From assembly GCA_030651305.1 (NCBI GenBank), contig JAUSCI010000075.1:1-64000 (forward strand): a DNA stretch of 64,000 bases, in the 5' to 3' direction. Below are positions 8,497 to 30,752 of this stretch, in pieces. The number at the start of each line of letters is the position of its first letter. Positions within the stretch are counted from its first letter, which is position 1. This DNA is from Sulfuritalea sp. Lineage in GTDB: Bacteria > Pseudomonadota > Gammaproteobacteria > Burkholderiales > Rhodocyclaceae. The notes beneath the pieces were generated by a model. It did not search any database, was not told the origin of the DNA, and was given only the letters and a program-made list of their open reading frames with translations. The translations under genes and the position numbers were made by a program.

Positions 8497-9399
8497 TCAG
8501 CGCTCTGTCTGCTGGCGCAAGTGCTCGGCGCGCTTCATCTCCAGATACTCGGCCCGATCCATCTCATGTAACTGCCGCGGATACCGCTCGACAGCCGTAA
8601 ACCAGCTCTGCAAACGGTGTTCAAGGCGGACCGCGGCTACCGCGTCGGAGGCCCCGAGAAAGCTGTCGATCGCGAGGTAATAACGCATCGTGTTGCGTTC
8701 CACGAGGCCGCGTACCCCGCCAATATGGCTGACTTGACCGCCGACTTGAGTACTGCTCAGGGTGAAGCCCACTTTGTCGTTGCCGACGGTGCCGAGATAG
8801 GTCTTCAAGGCCAGCCGTGCGGCAAGATTGATGGTGTAGGAGTAGGTCAGATGGACGAAGGTCCTGGCGTTCGGCAGCGCTACCGCTTCCAGGCGAACGC
8901 GATAGTCGCTGGTGCCGAGCGGTCCGTTTTCGGCGTCGAGGGCAATTGCAAAATAGTCCGGCGTCGCCGCGGCGGCGCTGAATCTGAATTCGATACGCTC
9001 TGAATCGGCGAGTGCTTCCTGCTTTTTGCTACCGACATTCACTCTCAGGACGGTGCCGGAAGGTCCTGCCACCGCATGGCAATACTTCGTGTTGATGTGG
9101 AGCAGCATCACGTCGCACCAGTGATCCGGACTGGCCAGACCGGCACTGACCTTGTCCAGCGGGTAATCGACGATTGCGTAGATGTCGCCCTGCAACCGGT
9201 CCGCGGTTTCAATGGAATCGAGAACCAGCGGCCGTCCGAATTGATTGGTCCGCAATTGTTCCTGCATCGACACATGGCGCTGGCGCAATGTCGCCCCAGG
9301 ATCCGGTCCCGGCGCAGCGGCCTCGGCGACAGCCGTAGCACAGATCAACAGCAGGCATGGCACCGCGCCCAGCGAGCCCGACCGCAAACGCTTATTCAC
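8497..9399 (-). CDS. Conserved hypothetical exported protein
   Basis: Long ORF with N-terminal signal sequence; no family recognised with confidence. Confidence 0.7.
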   Translation of the reverse strand: MNKRLRSGSLGAVPCLLLICATAVAEAAAPGPDPGATLRQRHVSMQEQLRTNQFGRPLVLDSIETADRLQGDIYAIVDYPLDKVSAGLASPDHWCDVMLLHINTKYCHAVAGPSGTVLRVNVGSKKQEALADSERIEFRFSAAAATPDYFAIALDAENGPLGTSDYRVRLEAVALPNARTFVHLTYSYTINLAARLALKTYLGTVGNDKVGFTLSSTQVGGQVSHIGGVRGLVERNTMRYYLAIDSFLGASDAVAAVRLEHRLQSWFTAVERYPRQLHEMDRAEYLEMKRAEHLRQQTER

Positions 9400-9432
9400 G
9401 TCGGTTGCCCCGCTGCAAACGTGGGAAGGGGG

Positions 9433-9843
9433 TCATATCGCCTGTATCGGCTGGCGCAGATCGAGGACAAAAACTTCGTGATCGTCCGCCATCCTTCGCG
9501 ATACGCTGACTTCCACTGCAAACCCTTGGCCGCGGGCGTCGGTTGCCTCGAATTTCCGCCAACCGGCGTCTGCGCCGAGATGGACGAGATACCTCGCGTC
9601 ATGGCCCGGTGATTCGGCATGCCCCAACAGGCCGGCGATAAACGCCGAAACCGGCTTCCCCAGCAGTCGGCCCCGGCTTGTCCCGAATATGTCTTCCACG
9701 GCAGCCCCGCAACCGCAGATCATGCCGGCGCCATCCACGATCAACGCGGTGTGCTCGCGGCCGCTCGCCGGGTTCGCTGCGGCATGGACCGGGTTGGGTA
9801 TCGAGTGGTACTGCTGCGGCGCAATTCTGGCGTGGGCGATCAT
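9433..9843 (-). CDS. PAS-domain-like protein
   Basis: TALIVDGAGMICGCGAAVEDIFGTSRGRLLGKPVSAFIAGLL; internal start MIAHARIAPQQ chosen. Confidence 0.6.
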   Translation of the reverse strand: MIAHARIAPQQYHSIPNPVHAAANPASGREHTALIVDGAGMICGCGAAVEDIFGTSRGRLLGKPVSAFIAGLLGHAESPGHDARYLVHLGADAGWRKFEATDARGQGFAVEVSVSRRMADDHEVFVLDLRQPIQAI

Positions 9844-9962
9844 GGTCGTTATCCTTTGCCGATTGACAATGAAACATCCGGTGCTGACAGGCCTGCTCTG
9901 ATTTTGACTGACGAAAATTGAAAATAGTTCAGGAACAATGTTTGTGCATCGAGCCCCGCGCA

Positions 9963-10586
9963 TTACTTCTTCGCTTCGTAGCCGCTCGTCCGGTTCTTGT
10001 TCTGCAGGGATTTGATCAGTCCGTCTATGCCGCCGCGACTCACCTCGGTGGCAAAGGAACTGCGATAGTTGGTCACGAGGCTGATGCCGTCGACCTCGAT
10101 GTCGAAAATCTTCCATCCAGCCTGCAGCTTTTCAAGGTAGTAGTCGAGCCCGATGGGTTTGCCGCTGCCCTGATTGACCTGGGTGCGTACCTTGGCGTCC
10201 GCGCTACCGGCACTCATCTTGAACGGTTTGAATTCGACGGTCTGGTTCTTGTACCCGGTCAAGGCCTTGGCATAGGTACGCACCAGCAGGGTGTGAAACT
10301 CGTCGTCCAACTGCTTCTTCTGAGCGACGTCGGCGCTTTTCCAGTTCTGTCCGACGGCGAGTTGGGTCATGTGGGTGAAATTGAAGTGCGGCAGCACCCT
10401 GGCTTCGATCAATTCGATCGCCTTCTTGCTGTTGCCAGCCTGGATATCCTTGTCGCTGCGGATGATTTGCAGGACCTCGTTGGTGACGTTCTTCACCAGG
10501 GCATCGGGAGCCACGCCCGCCGTCTGGGCTTGTGCCATCGTCGTAAGACCTGCCATGAGCAGCAAGACGAGACTGTTCAGTTTCAT
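9963..10586 (-). CDS. MlaC/Ttg2D family phospholipid ABC transporter substrate-binding protein
   Basis: VLPHFNFTHMTQLAVGQNWKSADVAQKKQLDDEFHTLLVRTYAKAL. Confidence 0.9.
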   Translation of the reverse strand: MKLNSLVLLLMAGLTTMAQAQTAGVAPDALVKNVTNEVLQIIRSDKDIQAGNSKKAIELIEARVLPHFNFTHMTQLAVGQNWKSADVAQKKQLDDEFHTLLVRTYAKALTGYKNQTVEFKPFKMSAGSADAKVRTQVNQGSGKPIGLDYYLEKLQAGWKIFDIEVDGISLVTNYRSSFATEVSRGGIDGLIKSLQNKNRTSGYEAKK

Positions 10587-10829
10587 TTGTTACCTCCTCG
10601 GGATGGGCGCGCCATTGTTCATCGTCGGTCACTGCGCAAGAGACACTGTGCAGTAACCAGGGCAGCGATGAATTGATGGTAGGCAAGGCTGCCCTGGCCA
10701 TCCGTCTGCCAGCGCACATAGCAATAGTCGACATCGCAGCGGATTGGACGCTGCTACAGCGAGGGACAGGAAAATCGATGTGTCCGCGCCGTCGTACCGG
10801 CCCGGATTCCGGACGCGCGGAAAGCTTGC

Positions 10830-11192
10830 TCAGGGGCCGATGCCGGCGCGAGCCCTGTCCTTGAATGAGCAGGTCTTGTCCTGAATGTGCCCCGCGTAAT
10901 GCTGCTGGAAGGCGCGGCAGATGTCCGGCTTGAACAGCCATTGCCGGTCGGACGTGGTAAAGAAGCCGGCATCGATCGGAAACTCCCGGTCGAGGTAGAT
11001 CTCGAACATCCTTACCCCATCGGACGGGATCTTGTGCCGGTGCAGATATTCGACCAGGCCGCAAACGGTGTCCGAGAAGTAGGACTTGTACTCCTCGCTT
11101 TCATCGAACATGCGAATCCTGGCCTCATAGGTATAGGGCAGACTCTTGTCGTATTTCGACTTCGGGCCCAGCACTGCTTCAAGAAAGCTCAT
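10830..11192 (-). CDS. Hypothetical protein
   Basis: 120-aa ORF with a plausible start; no family recognised. Confidence 0.5.
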   Translation of the reverse strand: MSFLEAVLGPKSKYDKSLPYTYEARIRMFDESEEYKSYFSDTVCGLVEYLHRHKIPSDGVRMFEIYLDREFPIDAGFFTTSDRQWLFKPDICRAFQQHYAGHIQDKTCSFKDRARAGIGP

Positions 11193-11298
11193 GATTGATC
11201 TCCTTGATCGGGGACTGTCATGGTACTCCGCGATGCGTTTTCAAGCACGCGCTTTCCGAAAATGCCGGCCGCTTGCCGGGCCGCGGATCATGACCCAC

Positions 11299-12402
11299 TC
11301 AGTTACCAAATTGCGCGATGAAGCGACGGTCGATCCTGTCCTTCCAGCGCCATGCCCAGGCGCCCGATGTGCTGAATCCGCCCCATGCCGCCAGCGCGTG
11401 CTGGTGGCCGGTGCTGAGCAGATACAGCGCGCGCTGTTGCGGTCGCCATGGCGTCAAGGCTTGTCTCTGGCAGATGGCGCGCAGGTTGTGCGCCAGCGGC
11501 GGACCGGCACGCACCGCGAACACGCCGGACTTGGGCCGGGCATCGGCATAGGCGGCGACATCGCCGACAGCGAATACAAAGGGGTGGGAAAGGCTCTGCA
11601 GCATCGCATTGACCCGGATGAAGCCTGCATCGTCGGTGGCGAGGCCGCTGGCGGCAGGCCAGGCCGGTGCGGCCGCGCCGGTGGCAATCAGGGTGGCGTC
11701 AGCGGCCAGTTGCGATCTGTCGTCAAGCTGCACGTGGCCGGGCCGCAGGGCGACGGCGTGCCGGCCGCCCAAGTGCGCGATGCCTTGCGCGGCAAGCAGC
11801 CTCGCTGCCTTGCGGCGCAACAGAAACGGAAAGCCGGTCAAGGGTTCGCGGTTGCTGCCGATCAACGTGAGGCGGACGCGGTTCAGCCCTTCCGTCGCAA
11901 AGCGAGCCTGGATGGCAAAGGCCAGTTCCGTCGCCGCTGCGCCATCGCCGACTATTGCCAGCCTGAACCCGTTCTGCCGGGCCCTTTCCAGCAGGCCGGG
12001 CCAGGCGGCGACGAAGCCCTCGATGGGTCGGATCGGCAGTCCGTGTTCGACGGCGCCGGCAAGTCCCGCGAGATTGGCAGCGGGGCCGGTATCGATCGAG
12101 ACATGGTCGAACGGAATGCTTGCGCCATTGGCGCAGCGTATCTGCTTCGTCGCCAGATCCAGCGCGGTACAGGATGTTTGCACGAAGCTAGCGCCGGCGC
12201 GCCGGGCCAGCGAATCCAGCGCCAGGGCGCACTCTTCGATCGCGTAGTGGCCCTCTATCCAGCCCGGCATCATGCCCGAATAAATCTGGCGTGCATACGG
12301 CGATACCAGGGTCACGTCGGTGTCGGCAAACGGAGCTTTGGCCAGCGCTGCCAGGACATGCACATGGGCATGTCCGCCGCCAATCAGGACCAGTTGTTTC
12401 AC
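11299..12402 (-). CDS. FAD/NAD-dependent pyridine nucleotide-disulfide oxidoreductase family protein (NDH-2-like)
   Basis: GTG start; KQLVLIGGGHAHVHVLAAL dinucleotide-binding motif; FVFAVGDVAAYADA. Confidence 0.8.
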   Translation of the reverse strand: MKQLVLIGGGHAHVHVLAALAKAPFADTDVTLVSPYARQIYSGMMPGWIEGHYAIEECALALDSLARRAGASFVQTSCTALDLATKQIRCANGASIPFDHVSIDTGPAANLAGLAGAVEHGLPIRPIEGFVAAWPGLLERARQNGFRLAIVGDGAAATELAFAIQARFATEGLNRVRLTLIGSNREPLTGFPFLLRRKAARLLAAQGIAHLGGRHAVALRPGHVQLDDRSQLAADATLIATGAAAPAWPAASGLATDDAGFIRVNAMLQSLSHPFVFAVGDVAAYADARPKSGVFAVRAGPPLAHNLRAICQRQALTPWRPQQRALYLLSTGHQHALAAWGGFSTSGAWAWRWKDRIDRRFIAQFGN

Positions 12403-23363: not shown

Positions 23364-23432
23364 GCCGAACGTCCGACATAACCGGCGCTGCGCGGCTTCA
23401 TCGCGCAGCGTCCCCGCAACGAGTGGTTAGGC
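23364..23432 (-). repeat. attC site (69 bp)
   Basis: Terminal GTTCGGC/GCCTAAC boxes (minus strand); central GCTGCGCGATGAAGCCGCGCAGC hairpin. Confidence 0.9.
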
Positions 23433-23825
23433 CGGGTATGGAGAAAACTGGTCAGCAACGGCCCACCACCTTTCACTTTCCTTGACGAAGAAGAGCATGT
23501 CTCTACCGCCCATGTTGATTGTTTGACCACCCATTTCAAAAGACATGTCGAAGTAATACGCAACGACAGCCGAATTGCCGTAGACCTGGATGGTCGGGTC
23601 GATTTCCTCCCAGCGATGGATGCGAGCGGCGCTGCAAAAGTCCTTCCATCCGGCAATGCAGGCAGCGCCGCCTTCTAGACGGTTGCGATCCGTGGCAGTG
23701 ATAGCAACCATATTATGGTGAAAGAACTTGGAAAGGTCGTCGGGGTCTCCCTTCGTCCAAGCGTCATTCATTGCTCGGAGGGTAGACCAGATTTCTTGTT
23801 TGACTGGATCGGCAAAAGAGACCAT
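23427..23825 (-). CDS. SnoaL/NTF2-like (DUF4440-like) cassette protein
   Basis: WSTLRAMNDAWTKGDPDDLSKFFHHNMVAITATDRNRLEG; TAA stop lies in the attC R'' box. Confidence 0.85.
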   Translation of the reverse strand: MVSFADPVKQEIWSTLRAMNDAWTKGDPDDLSKFFHHNMVAITATDRNRLEGGAACIAGWKDFCSAARIHRWEEIDPTIQVYGNSAVVAYYFDMSFEMGGQTINMGGRDMLFFVKESERWWAVADQFSPYPA

Positions 23826-23862
23826 GGGTACCTCCTTGGAAAGTGTGTGGGAACGGCCTGAC

Positions 23863-23927
23863 GTCCAACGTCAGGGGCATTGCGCGACGCTTTATCGCGC
23901 AGCGTCCCCTGGACCACAGGGTTATGC
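23863..23927 (-). repeat. attC site (65 bp)
   Basis: gtccaac ... gcgcgacgctttatcgcgcagcg ... gttatgc. Confidence 0.85.
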
Positions 23928-23934
23928 CACGACG

Positions 23935-24273
23935 TCACTTGGCCCCCAATTTTGACAATGACAGCACGATTCCCTCAACAGATAGAAAGACATCTTCGCC
24001 AACTTCCTCGCGGCTGAGTATCCCGTCATGCAAGGCACTTGCCACGCCAAAAGCGGAATCCATACCAACAAACTGCGAATAGAGCTTTCGGGATATTCCG
24101 TTGTGGAATTCGTGAATTTTCTCATTCAGTTCGAAGATGTCAATTTCCTTGTCCTCCCACCGCACGAACTGGTCCTGTAGCGCACGAGTGGCGATAGACA
24201 ATTCTCTTTCATATGCAACTCCGGCGAATTGCCGAAGCGCCTTCACCAGTTTTCTCGACATCTTCCGTGACAC
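23935..24273 (-). CDS. Hypothetical cassette protein (112 aa)
   Basis: ORF fills cassette between two attC sites; helical, no domain recognised. Confidence 0.75.
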   Translation of the reverse strand: MSRKMSRKLVKALRQFAGVAYERELSIATRALQDQFVRWEDKEIDIFELNEKIHEFHNGISRKLYSQFVGMDSAFGVASALHDGILSREEVGEDVFLSVEGIVLSLSKLGAK

Positions 24274-24295
24274 GAAAGCACCTCAGGCAGTTGGG

Positions 24296-24390
24296 GCATA
24301 ACGTTCAAGGTCAGGGGCGCTGCGCGGCTTTATCGCGCAGCGTCCAGCGTCCAGCGACCGAAGGGAACGGGGTCGGCCGCCGGGTTGGGC
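24296..24390 (-). repeat. attC site (95 bp)
   Basis: gcataac ... gctgcgcggctttatcgcgcagc ... gttgggc; contains a small internal duplication cgtccagcgtccag. Confidence 0.92.
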
Positions 24391-24426
24391 CTCAAGGCCA
24401 GACACCAACCGGTTGTCAATCGCTTT

Positions 24427-24774
24427 CTAGCCGAAGAAGCAGCCATACTCATCTTTCTTGATGACGGACAGAAACTGGTCGAGTGTCTTTGCCTCGGGAT
24501 GCGGTTCGTAGCGGTGCCATTTTCCATCTGCACGATGCCAATAGACCTTCCATATGCCTTGGTTCTTTGTGAAGGTGGCCTTGGCCACCGGCTGCTCGGT
24601 TTTCTCCTTCGGATTTCTCCAAGACGGCCGAACTTCAAATAGCTCAACGCTTTGGTTTGTTAAACGGAAAACAAAATCGAGTTGATCTCGGATATGAGCG
24701 GGCGGGCGGATCTTCTCGATGAAGTCGTTCATCGTCTTTTCGATCCGCGCTACTTCGAGAGTTGACATCATCAT
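24427..24774 (-). CDS. DUF3024-like cassette protein
   Basis: Helical N-terminus, VFRLTNQSVELFEVRPSWRNPKEKTEQPVAKATFTKNQGIWKVYWHRADGKWHRYEP. Confidence 0.85.
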   Translation of the reverse strand: MMMSTLEVARIEKTMNDFIEKIRPPAHIRDQLDFVFRLTNQSVELFEVRPSWRNPKEKTEQPVAKATFTKNQGIWKVYWHRADGKWHRYEPHPEAKTLDQFLSVIKKDEYGCFFG

Positions 24775-24783
24775 TGGTAAGAG

Positions 24784-24853
24784 GCCCAACGTTTGAAATC
24801 ACCAGCGCTGCGCGGCTTCATCGCGCAGCGTCCGGTGGATTGATGGGTTGGGG
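24784..24853 (-). repeat. attC site (70 bp)
   Basis: gcccaac ... gctgcgcggcttcatcgcgcagc ... gttgggg. Confidence 0.92.
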
Positions 24854-24903
24854 CTCAACCGAACATCGCGAGAATCCGTGGCGAACGGTTACTTGCAATT
24901 GGA

Positions 24904-25560
24904 TCATCTTGCCAAGATCGCGAAGAATACGATCGGGGTCAGCGGAATATATAGAACGCTCATTACCCCGTCAGACATCTTCTTTACAGGACTACTGTTG
25001 TACTCGGCAAGCTCTTGTGTTGTAGGCCACTCTGTTAGGGTAACTTGATAAGTCCGGTTCAGCTTCTGCGATTCCGCGGGTTCGATACCGGACTGGTTAG
25101 CGTAGCGGTGACCGCGAATGGATATGCCCTCGGACCGCACTACAATCGCGGCTTGGTTGATGGTGTGTCTTGTGTGGGGAGCCAGTACGCGCAAAACCTC
25201 TCTATTCGACTCGTTGAAAGCACCGTCTGGTGTAGATACAGAAAGCATAATCTCTCCCGTTACGGTCCTATCAGGAAGCACTCTAAACCAATAGAAAGTT
25301 GCTTCCAACTTGGGTCGAAGTTGTGAATCCAGGATCTCGATGAGGCGAACTGGCATATCGAAGACGTAATGATGTTCCTTGCCGAAGAAAACTATCTTCT
25401 TCTTATCGGCGGATAGCATGATCGCGGACATGTTTTCGTTATAGGTCCGGTTGGGTGGCGGCGACGTTGCGCAACCAGATGCAATCAGTGAAATGGCAAC
25501 GCTTCCTATAGCCAATCCGAACAATTGCCGCCGAAGTGCGTTCGGAATTAAATAGTCCAT
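24904..25560 (-). CDS. Predicted lipoprotein, uncharacterised (218 aa)
   Basis: Cassette ORF; ISLIASGCATS lipobox. Confidence 0.8.
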   Translation of the reverse strand: MDYLIPNALRRQLFGLAIGSVAISLIASGCATSPPPNRTYNENMSAIMLSADKKKIVFFGKEHHYVFDMPVRLIEILDSQLRPKLEATFYWFRVLPDRTVTGEIMLSVSTPDGAFNESNREVLRVLAPHTRHTINQAAIVVRSEGISIRGHRYANQSGIEPAESQKLNRTYQVTLTEWPTTQELAEYNSSPVKKMSDGVMSVLYIPLTPIVFFAILAR

Positions 25561-25638
25561 TTTCTCTCCAATCTCAAACTAAGAGCTCGCTAACCGGATA
25601 GTGAGCGTAGCAATCTAGAGCACGGAACCTACTTAGAG

Positions 25639-25736
25639 CCCCAACGTTCAAGGTAACCGGCGCTGCGCGGCTTCATCGCGCAGCGTCCAGCGACCGAAGG
25701 GAGCGAGGTTGACCGCAGGGTTGGGCCTCTGACGGA
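25639..25736 (-). repeat. attC site (98 bp)
   Basis: ccccaac ... gctgcgcggcttcatcgcgcagc ... gttgggc. Confidence 0.93.
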
Positions 25737-25807
25737 ACCGACGCCGCAAGCTACAACGCACGGAGAAGAGTCGGCGCTGGCGACACGGCGACCGGGACGC
25801 CGAGCGG

Positions 25808-26308
25808 CTACTCGCGCATGGCCCCATCAACAAATGCCTCATACTCAGCCAACGAACCACAGTTTGAATTCTGCCCTTGACGCGATTGAACACGACATCC
25901 CATTGGGGCGGCATTTGCATTACTCGACAAATAGTGGGCCAATTCGCGTGAATCACCGACGTTAATCAATCCCTGCATCACTTGGGGAGAGATTACTTCC
26001 TTCAGACCGTCCTTCGTCATAACCATTGACTTATTAGTGAACGTTACGCTTACCAAGCAAACGCCTAGCCGCCTGTTGTAGTGCGCTACATGCTTGATTG
26101 ATCTTGGGGAACCCGGCGGATCGGCAAATTGTCGCGCAATAAACTTCTTTGCGTCGTCATTGCACTTAGTCTCAAGGTCTTCGGCTCTTGTAGTCGTTAT
26201 GGAGAATGAAGCAAAGAGCATGACGATGGTGAACGCAAGCAAGCGACGCTGCGTCTTGCAACAAGGAAGCTGTTGAGCCGATCCTTCAGGGGTGATTTTG
26301 ACTGACAT
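25808..26308 (-). CDS. Predicted exported protein, uncharacterised
   Basis: Cassette ORF; hydrophobic signal LLAFTIVMLFASFSITTTRA; start MSVKITPE chosen. Confidence 0.75.
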   Translation of the reverse strand: MSVKITPEGSAQQLPCCKTQRRLLAFTIVMLFASFSITTTRAEDLETKCNDDAKKFIARQFADPPGSPRSIKHVAHYNRRLGVCLVSVTFTNKSMVMTKDGLKEVISPQVMQGLINVGDSRELAHYLSSNANAAPMGCRVQSRQGQNSNCGSLAEYEAFVDGAMRE

Positions 26309-26364
26309 CGAATTGTCCTTGAATGTTTGGGAAGCAATTGGTCTTTGGCGACTTCGATAAAGAG

Positions 26365-26431
26365 GCCCAACGTCTGAAATCACCGGGCTGCGCGGCTTTT
26401 CGCGCAGCTCCGGTGGATTGATGGGTTGGGC
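26365..26431 (-). repeat. attC site (67 bp)
   Basis: gcccaac ... gctgcgcggcttttcgcgcagc ... gttgggc. Confidence 0.92.
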
Positions 26432-26472
26432 CTATAGACGGTACGGTCCGGCCACATCGGTAACAGAACAAT

Positions 26473-27558
26473 TCATTTGCCAATGGTCATGTGTTGCTGC
26501 GTTGAACCAGCGCCAATCTCGCCACCCGACATGCTTTGACCGCACGCGCTACCAGCGGTGCATTCCAAACTGATGGAATTTAAATCGTACACGCGGGAGT
26601 GGCCGTAATCACCAGTCGGCAATGGCACTCCTTTTGGAATGTAGAACGTCGCGCTGTGGCCACCGTAAAGCCCGCCTGGATAAGTGAATTTTTTCAGTAC
26701 AACGAAGGCGTTGTTCAAGTCAGGCGGAATGTTCGGAGGCGGTCGATTTTGCAGCTCATACTTCTTCTTGAGCGCATTGATCCAATTTGCCGCGTCATCC
26801 AAGTTGGCCCTACGCAGCATCCCGTTCTCCACAGCTTGTTCGAGCCCAGCTTGACCGGCTAGCGGCTCACGCTTGTTGTGAAACGATGCGGGCGTAGTGG
26901 TCGGCGACGTAACTAGCTCCTGACCTGTCTCAATCGGCTTCCCGATCAAGACACTGCCTGATTTTTCATTGACAGGGAAAATGCCGGTGATGGGTTGCGA
27001 GAAGAGCACCTGCGAGAGTTTTTGTTCTTTTCGCGCCTCGGCAGGTTTAGTGATTAGCCCGTAATTGAAGATCGCGAGAAACGACTCGTAACCTCCAAAT
27101 GTCTTATAGTTAAAAGCATTCGTCTCGCAGGGGCCTTTGTCCGTATAGGTACTGATGAGAAGCGGAGTGGAGGTTTTCAAGCCGGCCACTCTCTGCCTGT
27201 AATACCCGTTAACAAACACGGCAGTAATCTTCGTTTCCTCGGTCCAACTGATATTCCAGATGGTCGGATTGGAGGCCCCCAGCATCAGGGCCACCGGCGC
27301 ACTCGTGTGATTCACCACTACGTCAATCTGGCTAACTGTTCTGGCGCTTTGGTCAATTTGGAAATCAAGCTTTCTGCCTTCGAGTGCGCCCGCTCCCAAA
27401 ACAACCAAGTCGTTAGCGAAGGTGGTATCAGGGAATGCGCAAGCTGCCGGCACGACGTCCTGTGCTGGGGCCACCAGCCTTTCCTTTGGCTTGTCGGTAT
27501 GCGCACAGGCGCACAGGAAAGTTACGGTAGCGATTGCAGCGGTGATTGTCTTGGACAC
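26473..27558 (-). CDS. Predicted lipoprotein, uncharacterised (361 aa)
   Basis: Cassette ORF; TVTFLCACAH lipobox. Confidence 0.82.
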   Translation of the reverse strand: MSKTITAAIATVTFLCACAHTDKPKERLVAPAQDVVPAACAFPDTTFANDLVVLGAGALEGRKLDFQIDQSARTVSQIDVVVNHTSAPVALMLGASNPTIWNISWTEETKITAVFVNGYYRQRVAGLKTSTPLLISTYTDKGPCETNAFNYKTFGGYESFLAIFNYGLITKPAEARKEQKLSQVLFSQPITGIFPVNEKSGSVLIGKPIETGQELVTSPTTTPASFHNKREPLAGQAGLEQAVENGMLRRANLDDAANWINALKKKYELQNRPPPNIPPDLNNAFVVLKKFTYPGGLYGGHSATFYIPKGVPLPTGDYGHSRVYDLNSISLECTAGSACGQSMSGGEIGAGSTQQHMTIGK

Positions 27559-27606
27559 AAAGCCCCCTTCGTGGAATTAGATAAAGTTCGTACTGCACAA
27601 CATTAG

Positions 27607-27677
27607 CCCCAACGTTTGACATAACCGGCGCTGCGCGGCTTCATCGCGCAGCGTCCGTGTTGATGGATGGGTTGGGC
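27607..27677 (-). repeat. attC site (71 bp)
   Basis: ccccaac ... gctgcgcggcttcatcgcgcagc ... gttgggc. Confidence 0.93.
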
Positions 27678-27678
27678 G

Positions 27679-28332
27679 TCATGGCATAAGTTTGGTAATC
27701 ATGTAACCAACTATGCCACCCAAAATGGCTGATATGCCAGCAAGGGCGATGTCGTCTTTCTTGCGCTCAAAGAATGTTTTTACTTCACTACGTTGCTGGC
27801 TATGAACAATTACCTTGTTCTTCATGCCGGATCTAACGTTGAGTGGAATTGTCGCGAGTGACAGGAGAATGAGCAGCGCGCCAACGACGTATTCCTTTGA
27901 GACGATTTGCCATGTGCCTACAAGTACTGCGACGTTTGAAAGTGCAACGTAGAACCATCCGGGGTTTTTCTTCTTGCCACTATTTACGATATCTCGAACC
28001 TTCGAAACGATACCTCGCTGCACTAGCGTGTCTTCACTGATATATGCGCTGACACCATACGTTCGTAGATCAATTGAGATAAAAGGGTCGTAACCTTTCA
28101 AATACACATGGTCAAAGCGACCGGCCGGAAATTTTGACGCCAGCTCTGTGAGTTCGGATGGGTCTGTTATTTTGTATTCACCCGTCTTAATCTCAATCTC
28201 CTTACAAGCTTGGGCAAGGACTTCGACAATTTGTGCAAGATCGTCTAGGTAAAGAGTCGTGGGTGGAAAGTCTTCGCTTATCTTATTTGTTATTTTTTCC
28301 AATATCCTCTCCCTTGTTACTTTGACGCCCAA
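27679..28332 (-). CDS. Predicted membrane protein, uncharacterised (217 aa)
   Basis: Cassette ORF with hydrophobic segments around residues 120-165 and near the C-terminus. Confidence 0.8.
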   Translation of the reverse strand: MGVKVTRERILEKITNKISEDFPPTTLYLDDLAQIVEVLAQACKEIEIKTGEYKITDPSELTELASKFPAGRFDHVYLKGYDPFISIDLRTYGVSAYISEDTLVQRGIVSKVRDIVNSGKKKNPGWFYVALSNVAVLVGTWQIVSKEYVVGALLILLSLATIPLNVRSGMKNKVIVHSQQRSEVKTFFERKKDDIALAGISAILGGIVGYMITKLMP

Positions 28333-28414
28333 CGTTCAAGGTGACCGGCGCTGCGCGGCTTCATCGCGCAGCGTCCAGAGAGCGAAGCGAACGGGGTCGA
28401 CCGGCCGGTTAGCC
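28327..28414 (-). repeat. attC site (88 bp)
   Basis: gcccaac ... gctgcgcggcttcatcgcgcagc ... gttagcc. Confidence 0.93.
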
Positions 28415-28415
28415 A

Positions 28416-28850
28416 TCAATTCGATGCAGCGAGATTGGTTTCTAGCACGCCCTTCTTTCCTTCCTCTTCAGATACGAGATGCAACATGTTTCTGGCGTAG
28501 AGGAGACCCATTTTCACTTCTTGCCAAATGAATGCGAGTTTCCCTGGCTTGACTTCGACCTCCAAGGTGTCGGTATTCTCGGCAGTAGAAGAAACGATGT
28601 GTTTTCCGGGCGTCACTTCCTTGTAGAAGTAGGTGTTCGCAGCGGTCTGGCCTACGATTTGGTTGTCGATTGCTACGTCCATCCTTACCGCGGCGCCCAT
28701 GGATTCATTGCGGTAGATGTAGATTCCAGCTTTGTCTTTAGCGACAGCGAATGTCTTCGCTTGAGCGTCCTTCTTTGGGTCGCCCATTGGAACCGAGGCA
28801 CAGCCAGAAATCGCAAGCGCAACAATCACGGGAAAGAATTGGCGTTTCAT
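28416..28850 (-). CDS. DUF2846-like lipoprotein
   Basis: ALAISGCASVPMG lipobox; KDKAGIYIYRNESMGAAVRMDVAIDNQIVGQTAANTYFYKEVTPGKHIV. Confidence 0.88.
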   Translation of the reverse strand: MKRQFFPVIVALAISGCASVPMGDPKKDAQAKTFAVAKDKAGIYIYRNESMGAAVRMDVAIDNQIVGQTAANTYFYKEVTPGKHIVSSTAENTDTLEVEVKPGKLAFIWQEVKMGLLYARNMLHLVSEEEGKKGVLETNLAASN

Positions 28851-28889
28851 TGTGGTGCTCCTTTAGTGGTAAATGAGTGGAATTTTGAT

Positions 28890-28959
28890 GGCTAACGTTC
28901 AAGGTCAGGGACGCTGCGCGGCTTTATCGCGTAGCGTCCCCTGCACCGCAGGGTTCGAC
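28890..28959 (-). repeat. attC site (70 bp)
   Basis: ggctaac ... gctgcgcggctttatcgcgtagc ... gttcgac. Confidence 0.9.
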
Positions 28960-28964
28960 GTCTC

Positions 28965-30095
28965 TCAGAAGGGAATGTCATCGTCAAAGTCGCTGAATTT
29001 CTGAGGTTCGTACCGTCCAATAGCATCTAGGCGCGACTGAATGTTCGCCAAAATAATTCGTCTCTTTTCATCACTGGATGACTTCATCAAGGAAATGAAG
29101 TTCTTTACACAAGAGACCGCGAAGCCGCTCTTGTGATATCTAAAGCCGCCATTTAGAAAGCACCGTAAGACAGGGGCGCAGTCGGGTGCTTCATCTTCGA
29201 GCATGAAGTTTCGATATGCTGACTCGAGCTTGGCAACAATTTTCTCGTGGTCATCCGTGTATTTTGTTCCGTTCTCGATTTTTGCTACGTGCTCCGTTAA
29301 GCCATTCGCGAAGGCTCTGTAGCTGTTGCGTTCTTGCCCAAAAAATTCGATCTCGGATAGTTTGTTTGAAAGCACTTCCCTTTCAACATCGAGAAAGCTG
29401 ACAAAACGATTCTCTGGGGCGACTTGGCACATCTTTCGAACAACCGATCGATATGGGAAGTCTTCGATTGATAGGTCTTGGATAACCTTTTCGAACAACT
29501 TTCCGACGAAATACACTTCAGTAGCGAAGTCGTAGTTTTTCTCCGAGAACTCATTTGGTGGCTGGCACCACCAGTTCAAACTAATGCTTTTGTCAAAATC
29601 ATCGGCGACCTCGACTCTCTTTCCAAACCCAAGGTCAATGATCTTTACTGTTCCGTCATTAGTAACCATCAGATTCATTGGCCTGATGTCACGATGAAGT
29701 ATGTTCCTCGATTCGAGGTGGCAGAATCCCTTGATTGTTTGATTGAAAATGTCGGCGAGAGCACTTGGATTGTCATTGACGTATTCGTCCAAGTCGGAAC
29801 CGTCCACGTATTCCATGAGTATGTACCCGGTCAGCTTCTCAGGATACAAATGGTAGTTGAATATCCTTACGACGTTTTGGTGGTACACGTCATGCAGCAG
29901 CTTGATCTCTCGTAAGAAGTTATCGAAGAATTCTTGCTTATGCTCTTCGTAATACGGCGAGTATTTCTTGCAAACAAACAGCTCATCAATTACATCGTCT
30001 CGGAGAAGAACAGTTTTTCCGCACGCGCCCTGCCCAAGCTCCTTGACGAGGACGTAGTTTCGTTTTCGCACAAACTCAATGACGTTATCACTCAT
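28965..30095 (-). CDS. Eukaryotic-like Ser/Thr protein kinase with C-terminal extension, cassette-borne
   Basis: VKELGQGACGKTVLL glycine loop, VCKKY, LREIKLL, HRDIRPMNLMV catalytic loop, KIIDLGFGK (DLG). Confidence 0.92.
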   Translation of the reverse strand: MSDNVIEFVRKRNYVLVKELGQGACGKTVLLRDDVIDELFVCKKYSPYYEEHKQEFFDNFLREIKLLHDVYHQNVVRIFNYHLYPEKLTGYILMEYVDGSDLDEYVNDNPSALADIFNQTIKGFCHLESRNILHRDIRPMNLMVTNDGTVKIIDLGFGKRVEVADDFDKSISLNWWCQPPNEFSEKNYDFATEVYFVGKLFEKVIQDLSIEDFPYRSVVRKMCQVAPENRFVSFLDVEREVLSNKLSEIEFFGQERNSYRAFANGLTEHVAKIENGTKYTDDHEKIVAKLESAYRNFMLEDEAPDCAPVLRCFLNGGFRYHKSGFAVSCVKNFISLMKSSSDEKRRIILANIQSRLDAIGRYEPQKFSDFDDDIPF

Positions 30096-30119
30096 CGCGG
30101 GCTTGGCTCCTCACGTGAC

Positions 30120-30207
30120 GTCGAACGTTCAAGGTGACCGGCGCTGCGCGGCTTCATCGCGCAGCGTCCAGAGAGCGAAGCGAACGGGGTCGACCGCAGG
30201 GTTAGAC
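30120..30207 (-). repeat. attC site (88 bp)
   Basis: gtcgaac ... gctgcgcggcttcatcgcgcagc ... gttagac. Confidence 0.93.
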
Positions 30208-30222
30208 ATCGGGGCGGAATTA

Positions 30223-30654
30223 CTATGACCATCTGCGAGCGATATAGGCGAGCATGAAAAAGAAAGCACCGAGGACCACAACAATTACGAAAGCGGGAGC
30301 GCGGCGTTGCGGGTTCAAAAATGTACCAATGTATTCTGCAATGGTGTCCACGGCTCGCTGTCTAGCAACCCAACCGGCCGCGCATAAGCACGTATAGGTG
30401 ATGTAGGCGAGGAAGAGCACGACAAAGGTGTGATAGGCAACTGCAATCCAAAACGCCAAGGGATTGGAGACTCGACTAACCATCTCGTGGCCGTACTTGT
30501 GAATCTCGTGTATCGATCCAATAAGAATCCCATACGCGATCAGCGCGGCACCTATGGCTGTAAGTGCCATAAGTGGAAGCGCTCCAAGTCGAGCGACCCA
30601 AGTACCCGCCGATCCGGTAGTAGGAGAAGGTCGTGTGGAATTGTGATCCGGCAT
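30223..30654 (-). CDS. Predicted membrane protein, uncharacterised (143 aa)
   Basis: Cassette ORF with three hydrophobic segments. Confidence 0.8.
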   Translation of the reverse strand: MPDHNSTRPSPTTGSAGTWVARLGALPLMALTAIGAALIAYGILIGSIHEIHKYGHEMVSRVSNPLAFWIAVAYHTFVVLFLAYITYTCLCAAGWVARQRAVDTIAEYIGTFLNPQRRAPAFVIVVVLGAFFFMLAYIARRWS

Positions 30655-30665
30655 ATGGTGTCGAT

Positions 30666-30752
30666 GTCTAACGTGAAGATGACCGGCGCTGCGCGGCTTT
30701 ATCGCGCAGCGTCCAGTGACCGAAGGGAACGGGGTCGATCGCAGGGTTAGGA
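30666..30752 (-). repeat. attC site (87 bp)
   Basis: gtctaac ... gctgcgcggctttatcgcgcagc ... gttagga. Confidence 0.93.

What the first reader, a model, noticed from the sequence alone, without database searches (positions are those of the whole stretch)
28965..30095. Eukaryotic-like protein kinase carried as a single integron cassette
Clean attC sites at 28890-28959 and 30120-30207 bracket one 376-aa ORF. The kinase keeps the glycine loop, VAxK-like lysine, HRDIRPMN catalytic loop and a DLG (not DFG) metal site, then about 130 residues of unrecognised C-terminal sequence. Large regulatory enzymes are unusual cassette cargo. A mobile kinase could be anti-phage or stress signalling, but this is speculation.
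Basis: partly seen in the sequence, partly recalled or inferred. Interest (0 to 1): 0.7.

Follow-up and report, generated by a model that had tools for sequence, protein, structure and literature searches.

The report
Integron kinase with an SSB-like tail
A mobile gene cassette carries an intact protein kinase whose last residues copy the tip that the bacterial single-strand DNA-binding protein uses to recruit replication and repair enzymes, and this tip is kept in all ten distinct relatives found, which suggests a previously undescribed way to bring a kinase to replicating or damaged DNA.

Summary
Window 28965-30095 (minus strand) encodes a 376-aa Hanks-type kinase with all catalytic residues, carried as one complete integron cassette (28896-30125) in an array without a local integrase. 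Ten distinct full-length homologs (including this one), down to 37% identity, all end in DD[IM]PF at the exact C-terminus, while the linker before it is unconserved (mean pairwise identity 0.25 against 0.96 for the tip). In the 3.9-Mb home genome only SSB and this kinase encode that ending. The family is rare, patchy and horizontally moved; one more member probably also sits in a cassette, beside TIR and Fic genes, and another lies near Lamassu genes. Most likely it is a mobile kinase that docks on SSB-binding replication/repair proteins and phosphorylates a partner there, probably as anti-phage defence, less probably as a replication-stress regulator. Docking is inferred from sequence; substrate, trigger and phage protection are untested. 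It is not a member of PD-T4-6 or MADS by the tests run. A kinase cassette alone would be a new member of a known kind; the conserved SSB-tip mimic makes it a new variant, testable with two point mutants.

The parts
28965..30095 (-). Kinase gene, 376 aa
   Evidence: ORF list; Pkinase E=2e-30; ten-member family alignment
29367..30056 (-). Kinase domain, residues 14-243; beta3 Lys43, alphaC Glu63, HRDIRPMN 134-141 (29673-29696), DLG 154-156 (29628-29636)
   Evidence: Pfam match; catalytic residues invariant in ten members; end of domain inferred from the conserved R230 region
29010..29348 (-). C-terminal helical region, residues 250-362, no Pfam family above its cut-off
   Evidence: mean pairwise identity 0.46 in ten members; low-confidence helical models
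28968..28988 (-). SSB-type C-terminal tip FDDDIPF, residues 370-376, directly before the stop
   Evidence: DD[IM]PF in 10 of 10 distinct homologs, mean pairwise identity 0.96 against 0.25 for the linker; host SSB ends NFNDFEDDIPF; only two such ends in the genome
28896..30125 (-). Complete integron cassette holding the kinase alone
   Evidence: R'' GTCGAAC of its own attC is the exact inverse complement of the cassette start GTTCGAC
28890..28959 (-). attC of the kinase cassette, 70 nt
   Evidence: Hairpin z = -2.9 as DNA; scan
30120..30207 (-). attC of the preceding cassette, 88 nt
   Evidence: weaker fold, z = -0.8
23366..30752 (-). Array of nine attC sites without an integrase on this contig (CALIN-like)
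   Evidence: Cores at 23386, 24318, 24806, 25661, 27629, 28349, 28912, 30142, 30687; integrase over cut-off only at G000:C32:56888-57832

Best explanation
The cassette encodes an active soluble Hanks-type kinase that ends in a mimic of the SSB C-terminal tip. The tip, on a short variable linker, docks into the SSB-Ct pockets of host (or phage) replication and repair proteins and so places the kinase at replication forks or SSB-coated DNA, where it phosphorylates one of these partners. I think it serves as a mobile, abortive-infection-type anti-phage kinase that blocks replication when forks are abnormal. Shown by sequence: intact catalytic residues, conserved tip, cassette carriage, horizontal spread. 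Inferred: catalytic activity (about 0.9), docking (about 0.8). Least certain: the defence role (about 0.5). The substrate is unknown. The confidence given is for the whole chain.
For: Tip: DD[IM]PF at the exact C-terminus of all ten distinct members, the others 38-91% identical to the window protein, with synonymous codon changes inside the tip and a diverged, length-variable linker before it; no run of five columns beyond residue 244 is as conserved, and nine of ten also keep Phe seven residues from the end as in FDDDIPF. Five main SSBs read from home genomes of the kinase (own, G238, G933, two MAGs) end DDIPF. Only SSB and this kinase end in DD[I/L/M]PF in the own genome. Five other plasmid kinases, two phage kinases and three own-genome kinases read to their stop lack the tip. 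SSB-Ct docks through its final Phe side chain, its alpha-carboxylate and upstream Asp residues (PMC10238739). Defence: LmuA/LmuB nearby (1e-57, 1e-201), TIR and Fic, Fic and DUF1016; foreign composition (GC 0.45 in a 0.62 window). Precedent: prophage kinase Stk is activated on HK97 infection and excludes that phage (PMC3681748).
Against: No binding, kinase or phage data. Several homologs have only housekeeping neighbours (mutL, fadJ, recQ), and the other cassettes of this array are not recognisable defence genes. No conserved partner gene. Structure models are poor (pLDDT 47 and 54). The ten members are related, so the conserved tip is one lineage's property, although over deep divergence.
Confidence: 0.5

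Rival explanations
1. Same docking, but the role is host-oriented: a kinase that tunes replication or recombination under DNA damage (as YabT phosphorylates a recombinase in Bacillus), kept as a useful accessory gene rather than as phage defence.
For: Relatives lie beside recQ (L032), mutL (L033, L034) and fadJ (L065-L067), mostly without defence genes; YabT precedent PMC3708118 (abstract).
Against: Rare, patchy and horizontally moved; Lamassu, TIR and Fic neighbours elsewhere.
Confidence: 0.28
2. The C-terminal DD[IM]PF has nothing to do with SSB partners: an autoinhibitory or stability tail of this kinase family that resembles SSB by convergence.
For: No binding data; the motif is short; many other phage proteins also end this way.
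Against: Exact C-terminal position, Phe seven residues from the end as in SSB, variable linker, and a match to the host SSB tip; calculated chance of such an end about 1.3e-6 per protein with assumed residue frequencies.
Confidence: 0.14
3. SSB decoy: the tail competes with SSB for its partners and the kinase merely controls this switch.
For: The tip resembles the peptide known to bind these pockets (PMC10238739).
Against: All catalytic residues are kept in ten members, which a pure decoy would not need; one tip per chain should compete poorly with tetrameric SSB (inference).
Confidence: 0.08

Closest known systems
Bacterial SSB C-terminal tip (SSB-Ct, MDFDDDIPF in E. coli)
   Same: Same last residues, same distance of the upstream Phe, variable linker before it; matches the host's own SSB
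   Different: No OB fold, a kinase domain instead; docking not shown
Prophage Stk kinase of 933W and phrog_2361 kinases
   Same: Mobile stand-alone eukaryotic-like kinase; window protein matches phrog_2361 at 1e-29 over residues 3-239; Stk excludes phage HK97
   Different: About 23% identity; two annotated phage kinases are 255-259 aa and end without the tip
PD-T4-6 and MADS MAD6 defence kinases
   Same: Best PADLOC matches by kinase domain (MAD6 6.8e-33, PD-T4-6 2.5e-28)
   Different: Match stops at the kinase core; MAD6 scores 75.8 against a cut-off of 460
CapK/VapK (DNA-damage-activated kinases of immune operons)
   Same: Kinase that couples single-stranded DNA stress to immunity (PMC13373217)
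   Different: GHKL fold, binds ssDNA directly, has a STAS partner; unrelated kinase fold
DdrB of Deinococcus
   Different: An ssDNA-annealing protein, not a kinase; its motif is reported as not needed for radioresistance

Membership tests
Integron gene cassette | Single gene bounded by attC sites with matching cassette ends | tested here: met
Integron gene cassette | Integron integrase in the genome with the same attC type | tested here: met
   TIGR02249 485 bits at C32:56888-57832 with the same attC core beside it; none on the window contig
Hanks-type protein kinase | Catalytic Lys, Glu, HRD, Asn and metal-binding Asp | tested here: met
   Pkinase 2e-30, residues invariant in ten members
Hanks-type protein kinase | Phosphotransfer activity | not testable with these tools
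   Needs an assay
SSB family | OB fold (PF00436) | tested here: not met
   No SSB match in the Pfam scan
SSB family | C-terminal tip of the DDDIPF type | tested here: met
   Ten of ten homologs end DD[IM]PF
PD-T4-6 | Full-length match to a PADLOC PD-T4-6 model | tested here: not met
   Best match covers residues 12-157, model 10-157 of 327
MADS MAD6 | NCBIfam NF047741 cut-off 460 bits and the MADS operon | tested here: not met
   75.8 bits; single-gene cassette
Phage Stk-type exclusion kinase (phrog_2361) | Same overall architecture and phage exclusion | tested here: inconclusive
   Kinase-level match only for the window protein; two phage kinases have no such tail; exclusion not tested

The most novel reading that the evidence does not exclude
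A family of mobile kinases has captured the SSB tip as an address label, so that the whole set of SSB-binding replication and repair proteins becomes accessible to phosphorylation at forks: a new mode of kinase targeting and probably a new type of fork-sensing phage defence spread by integrons and islands.
Probability: 0.45. Interest if true: 0.85.

Novelty: new variant of a known kind. Interest (0 to 1): 0.7.

Why it matters
SSB-Ct docking is a central hub of bacterial DNA maintenance, with at least 17 partners in E. coli (PMC10018359, abstract), and no paper in the held library contains both 'SSB-Ct' and 'protein kinase'. A kinase that uses this hub would show how phosphorylation can be directed to the replisome, give a short list of candidate substrates, and suggest that accessory genes exploit the SSB hub. 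The central claim needs only two mutants: final Phe removed, and catalytic Asp changed.

Tried and rejected
Housekeeping kinase: rejected, patchy and horizontally moved. Degenerate kinase: rejected, catalytic residues intact. Phage or plasmid core gene: no match covering 80% of the query in the phage or plasmid collections, only one IMG/VR contig, no nucleotide match in E. coli genomes. Tail homology to solved structures: nothing significant. AlphaFold2 of the whole protein and of the tail: pLDDT 47 and 54 with only five usable sequences, so no fold search was run. Conserved partner gene: none; neighbours differ at nearly every locus except among related Gallionellaceae. A promoter just upstream of the gene: none seen by consensus. 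My first attC scans were too strict and missed the known sites; the scan is the valid one. Chance tip: judged unlikely, but DD[IM]PF ends are common on phage proteins that an SSB model does not match, so the tip is not exclusive to SSB.

Full report
What is there. The window holds a row of nine attC sites with the same core (first core 23386, last 30687), genes all on the minus strand. One cassette, 30125 to 28896, holds a single gene, 28965-30095 (376 aa). Its own attC (28890-28959) begins GTCGAAC, the exact inverse complement of the cassette start (G)TTCGAC, as expected for one circularised cassette. A scan for paired ends plus a hairpin finds three sites around the gene and none in shuffles. 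No integron integrase lies on this contig; the genome's integrase is at C32:56888-57832 beside attC sites of the same type. The array is therefore an integrase-less cluster in a genome that owns a matching integron. The gene's GC is 0.45 in a window of 0.62.

The protein. Pfam Pkinase matches residues 14-203 (2e-30). Lys43, Glu63, HRD, Asn141 and Asp154 are invariant in ten distinct homologs; the DLG is DFG in four of them. Residues about 250-362 match no Pfam family above its cut-off and were modelled as helices at low confidence.

The overlooked feature. The protein ends FSDFDDDIPF. The tip of SSB, MDFDDDIPF in E. coli, is the docking peptide for replication and repair proteins; its final Phe side chain and alpha-carboxylate sit in a pocket with basic residues (PMC10238739). 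The home genome's own SSB ends NFNDFEDDIPF. A search of the whole 3.9-Mb genome for DNA encoding DD, then I, L or M, then PF and a stop gives exactly two places, SSB and this kinase, with one hit for the backward control pattern.

The family. Full-length relatives were found in MAGs of Gallionella and of an unnamed Proteobacterium (91, 82, 77%), in further genomes of the order, of another family of the class and of the Gallionellaceae, and on one IMG/VR contig (37%, GC 0.25 in the gene, so probably from a low-GC Firmicute). Ten distinct proteins, this one included, all end DD[IM]PF. Mean pairwise identity is 0.63 for the kinase domain, 0.46 for residues 250-362, 0.25 for the linker 363-371 and 0.96 for the last five residues; no other run of five columns beyond residue 244 reaches this. 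The tip codons vary synonymously while the residues stay, so the tip appears to be under purifying selection. Nine of ten also keep the Phe seven residues from the end. Five main SSBs read in home genomes end the same way; two second SSB copies do not. As a control, seven mobile kinases of other kinds and three own-genome kinases read to their stop lack the tip. As a caution, most phage ORFs found by a DD[IM]PF ending are not matched by an SSB model (matched: 7 of 111 and 22 of 116), although by eye many look like other ssDNA-binding or replication proteins; none of them resembled a kinase.

Mobility and neighbours. The window kinase is 91% identical to that of L032 although the hosts' SSB cores are 64% identical, so the gene has moved. 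In genome G238 (L040) the kinase is 57% identical and lies 12 nt from a perfect attC (10243-10338; fold z = -4.4), and the end expected for its own attC, ATCTAAC read on the minus strand, occurs on the other side, but the rest of that second site is degenerate and does not fold better than shuffles. So it is probably, not certainly, a second cassette, next to TIR and Fic genes. The IMG/VR relative lies a few genes from Lamassu LmuA and LmuB. L067 lies between a Fic gene and a DUF1016 gene. Other relatives lie near mutL, fadJ or recQ. Prevalence is low: 4 of 399 genomes of the order including the own one, none besides the own in 369 of the class sample, 1 of 299 in the family of G933, 5 of 158 Gallionellaceae.

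Mechanism. I infer that the tip tethers the kinase to SSB-Ct-binding proteins and that a partner at the fork is phosphorylated. Defence is my best guess for the purpose because the gene is mobile, rare and repeatedly near defence-type genes, and because the prophage kinase Stk is a precedent for phage exclusion by a mobile kinase (PMC3681748 and PMC6356687). Host regulation of replication or repair is the main rival.

Membership. It is an integron cassette and a Hanks-type kinase by tests met. It is not an SSB (no OB fold), and not PD-T4-6 or MAD6 by coverage or cut-off. It shares a kinase-level match with phage serine-threonine kinases (phrog_2361).

Limits. No interaction, activity or phage data exist. 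The held papers are open-access only, so earlier reports of SSB-tip kinases elsewhere cannot be excluded.

Noticed in passing
L040 (G238:C1:932000-951900), 9072-12038: Probable small cassette array Fic - TIR - kinase with attC-like sites at 10243-10338 and about 11229-11285, of a different attC type from the window.
   Followed up: partly
L044, 47-6116: Lamassu LmuA/LmuB genes (padloc 1e-57 and 1e-201) a few genes upstream of the 37% identical kinase on an IMG/VR contig.
   Followed up: partly
L078-L317 (IMG/VR contigs): Many phage ORFs of 100-1166 aa end in DDMPF or DDIPF but are not matched by an SSB model; SSB-tip endings on phage proteins look widespread.
   Followed up: partly
L032, 9734-11596: RecQ, a known SSB-Ct-binding protein, lies tail to tail with the kinase; in L033 and L034 mutL lies upstream. 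May be coincidence.
   Followed up: no
window 23427-28850: Other cassettes encode a SnoaL/DUF4440 protein, DUF3024, a DUF2846 protein and several ORFs without a family.
   Followed up: partly
G000:C32:56888-64080, C56, C59, C27, C47: Main integron integrase with attC sites running to the contig end, and further attC sites of the same type elsewhere in the genome.
   Followed up: no
L034 and L066, beside the kinase: A REP-associated tyrosine transposase-like ORF lies next to the kinase in two genomes with different neighbours (read by eye, not by a family search).
   Followed up: no
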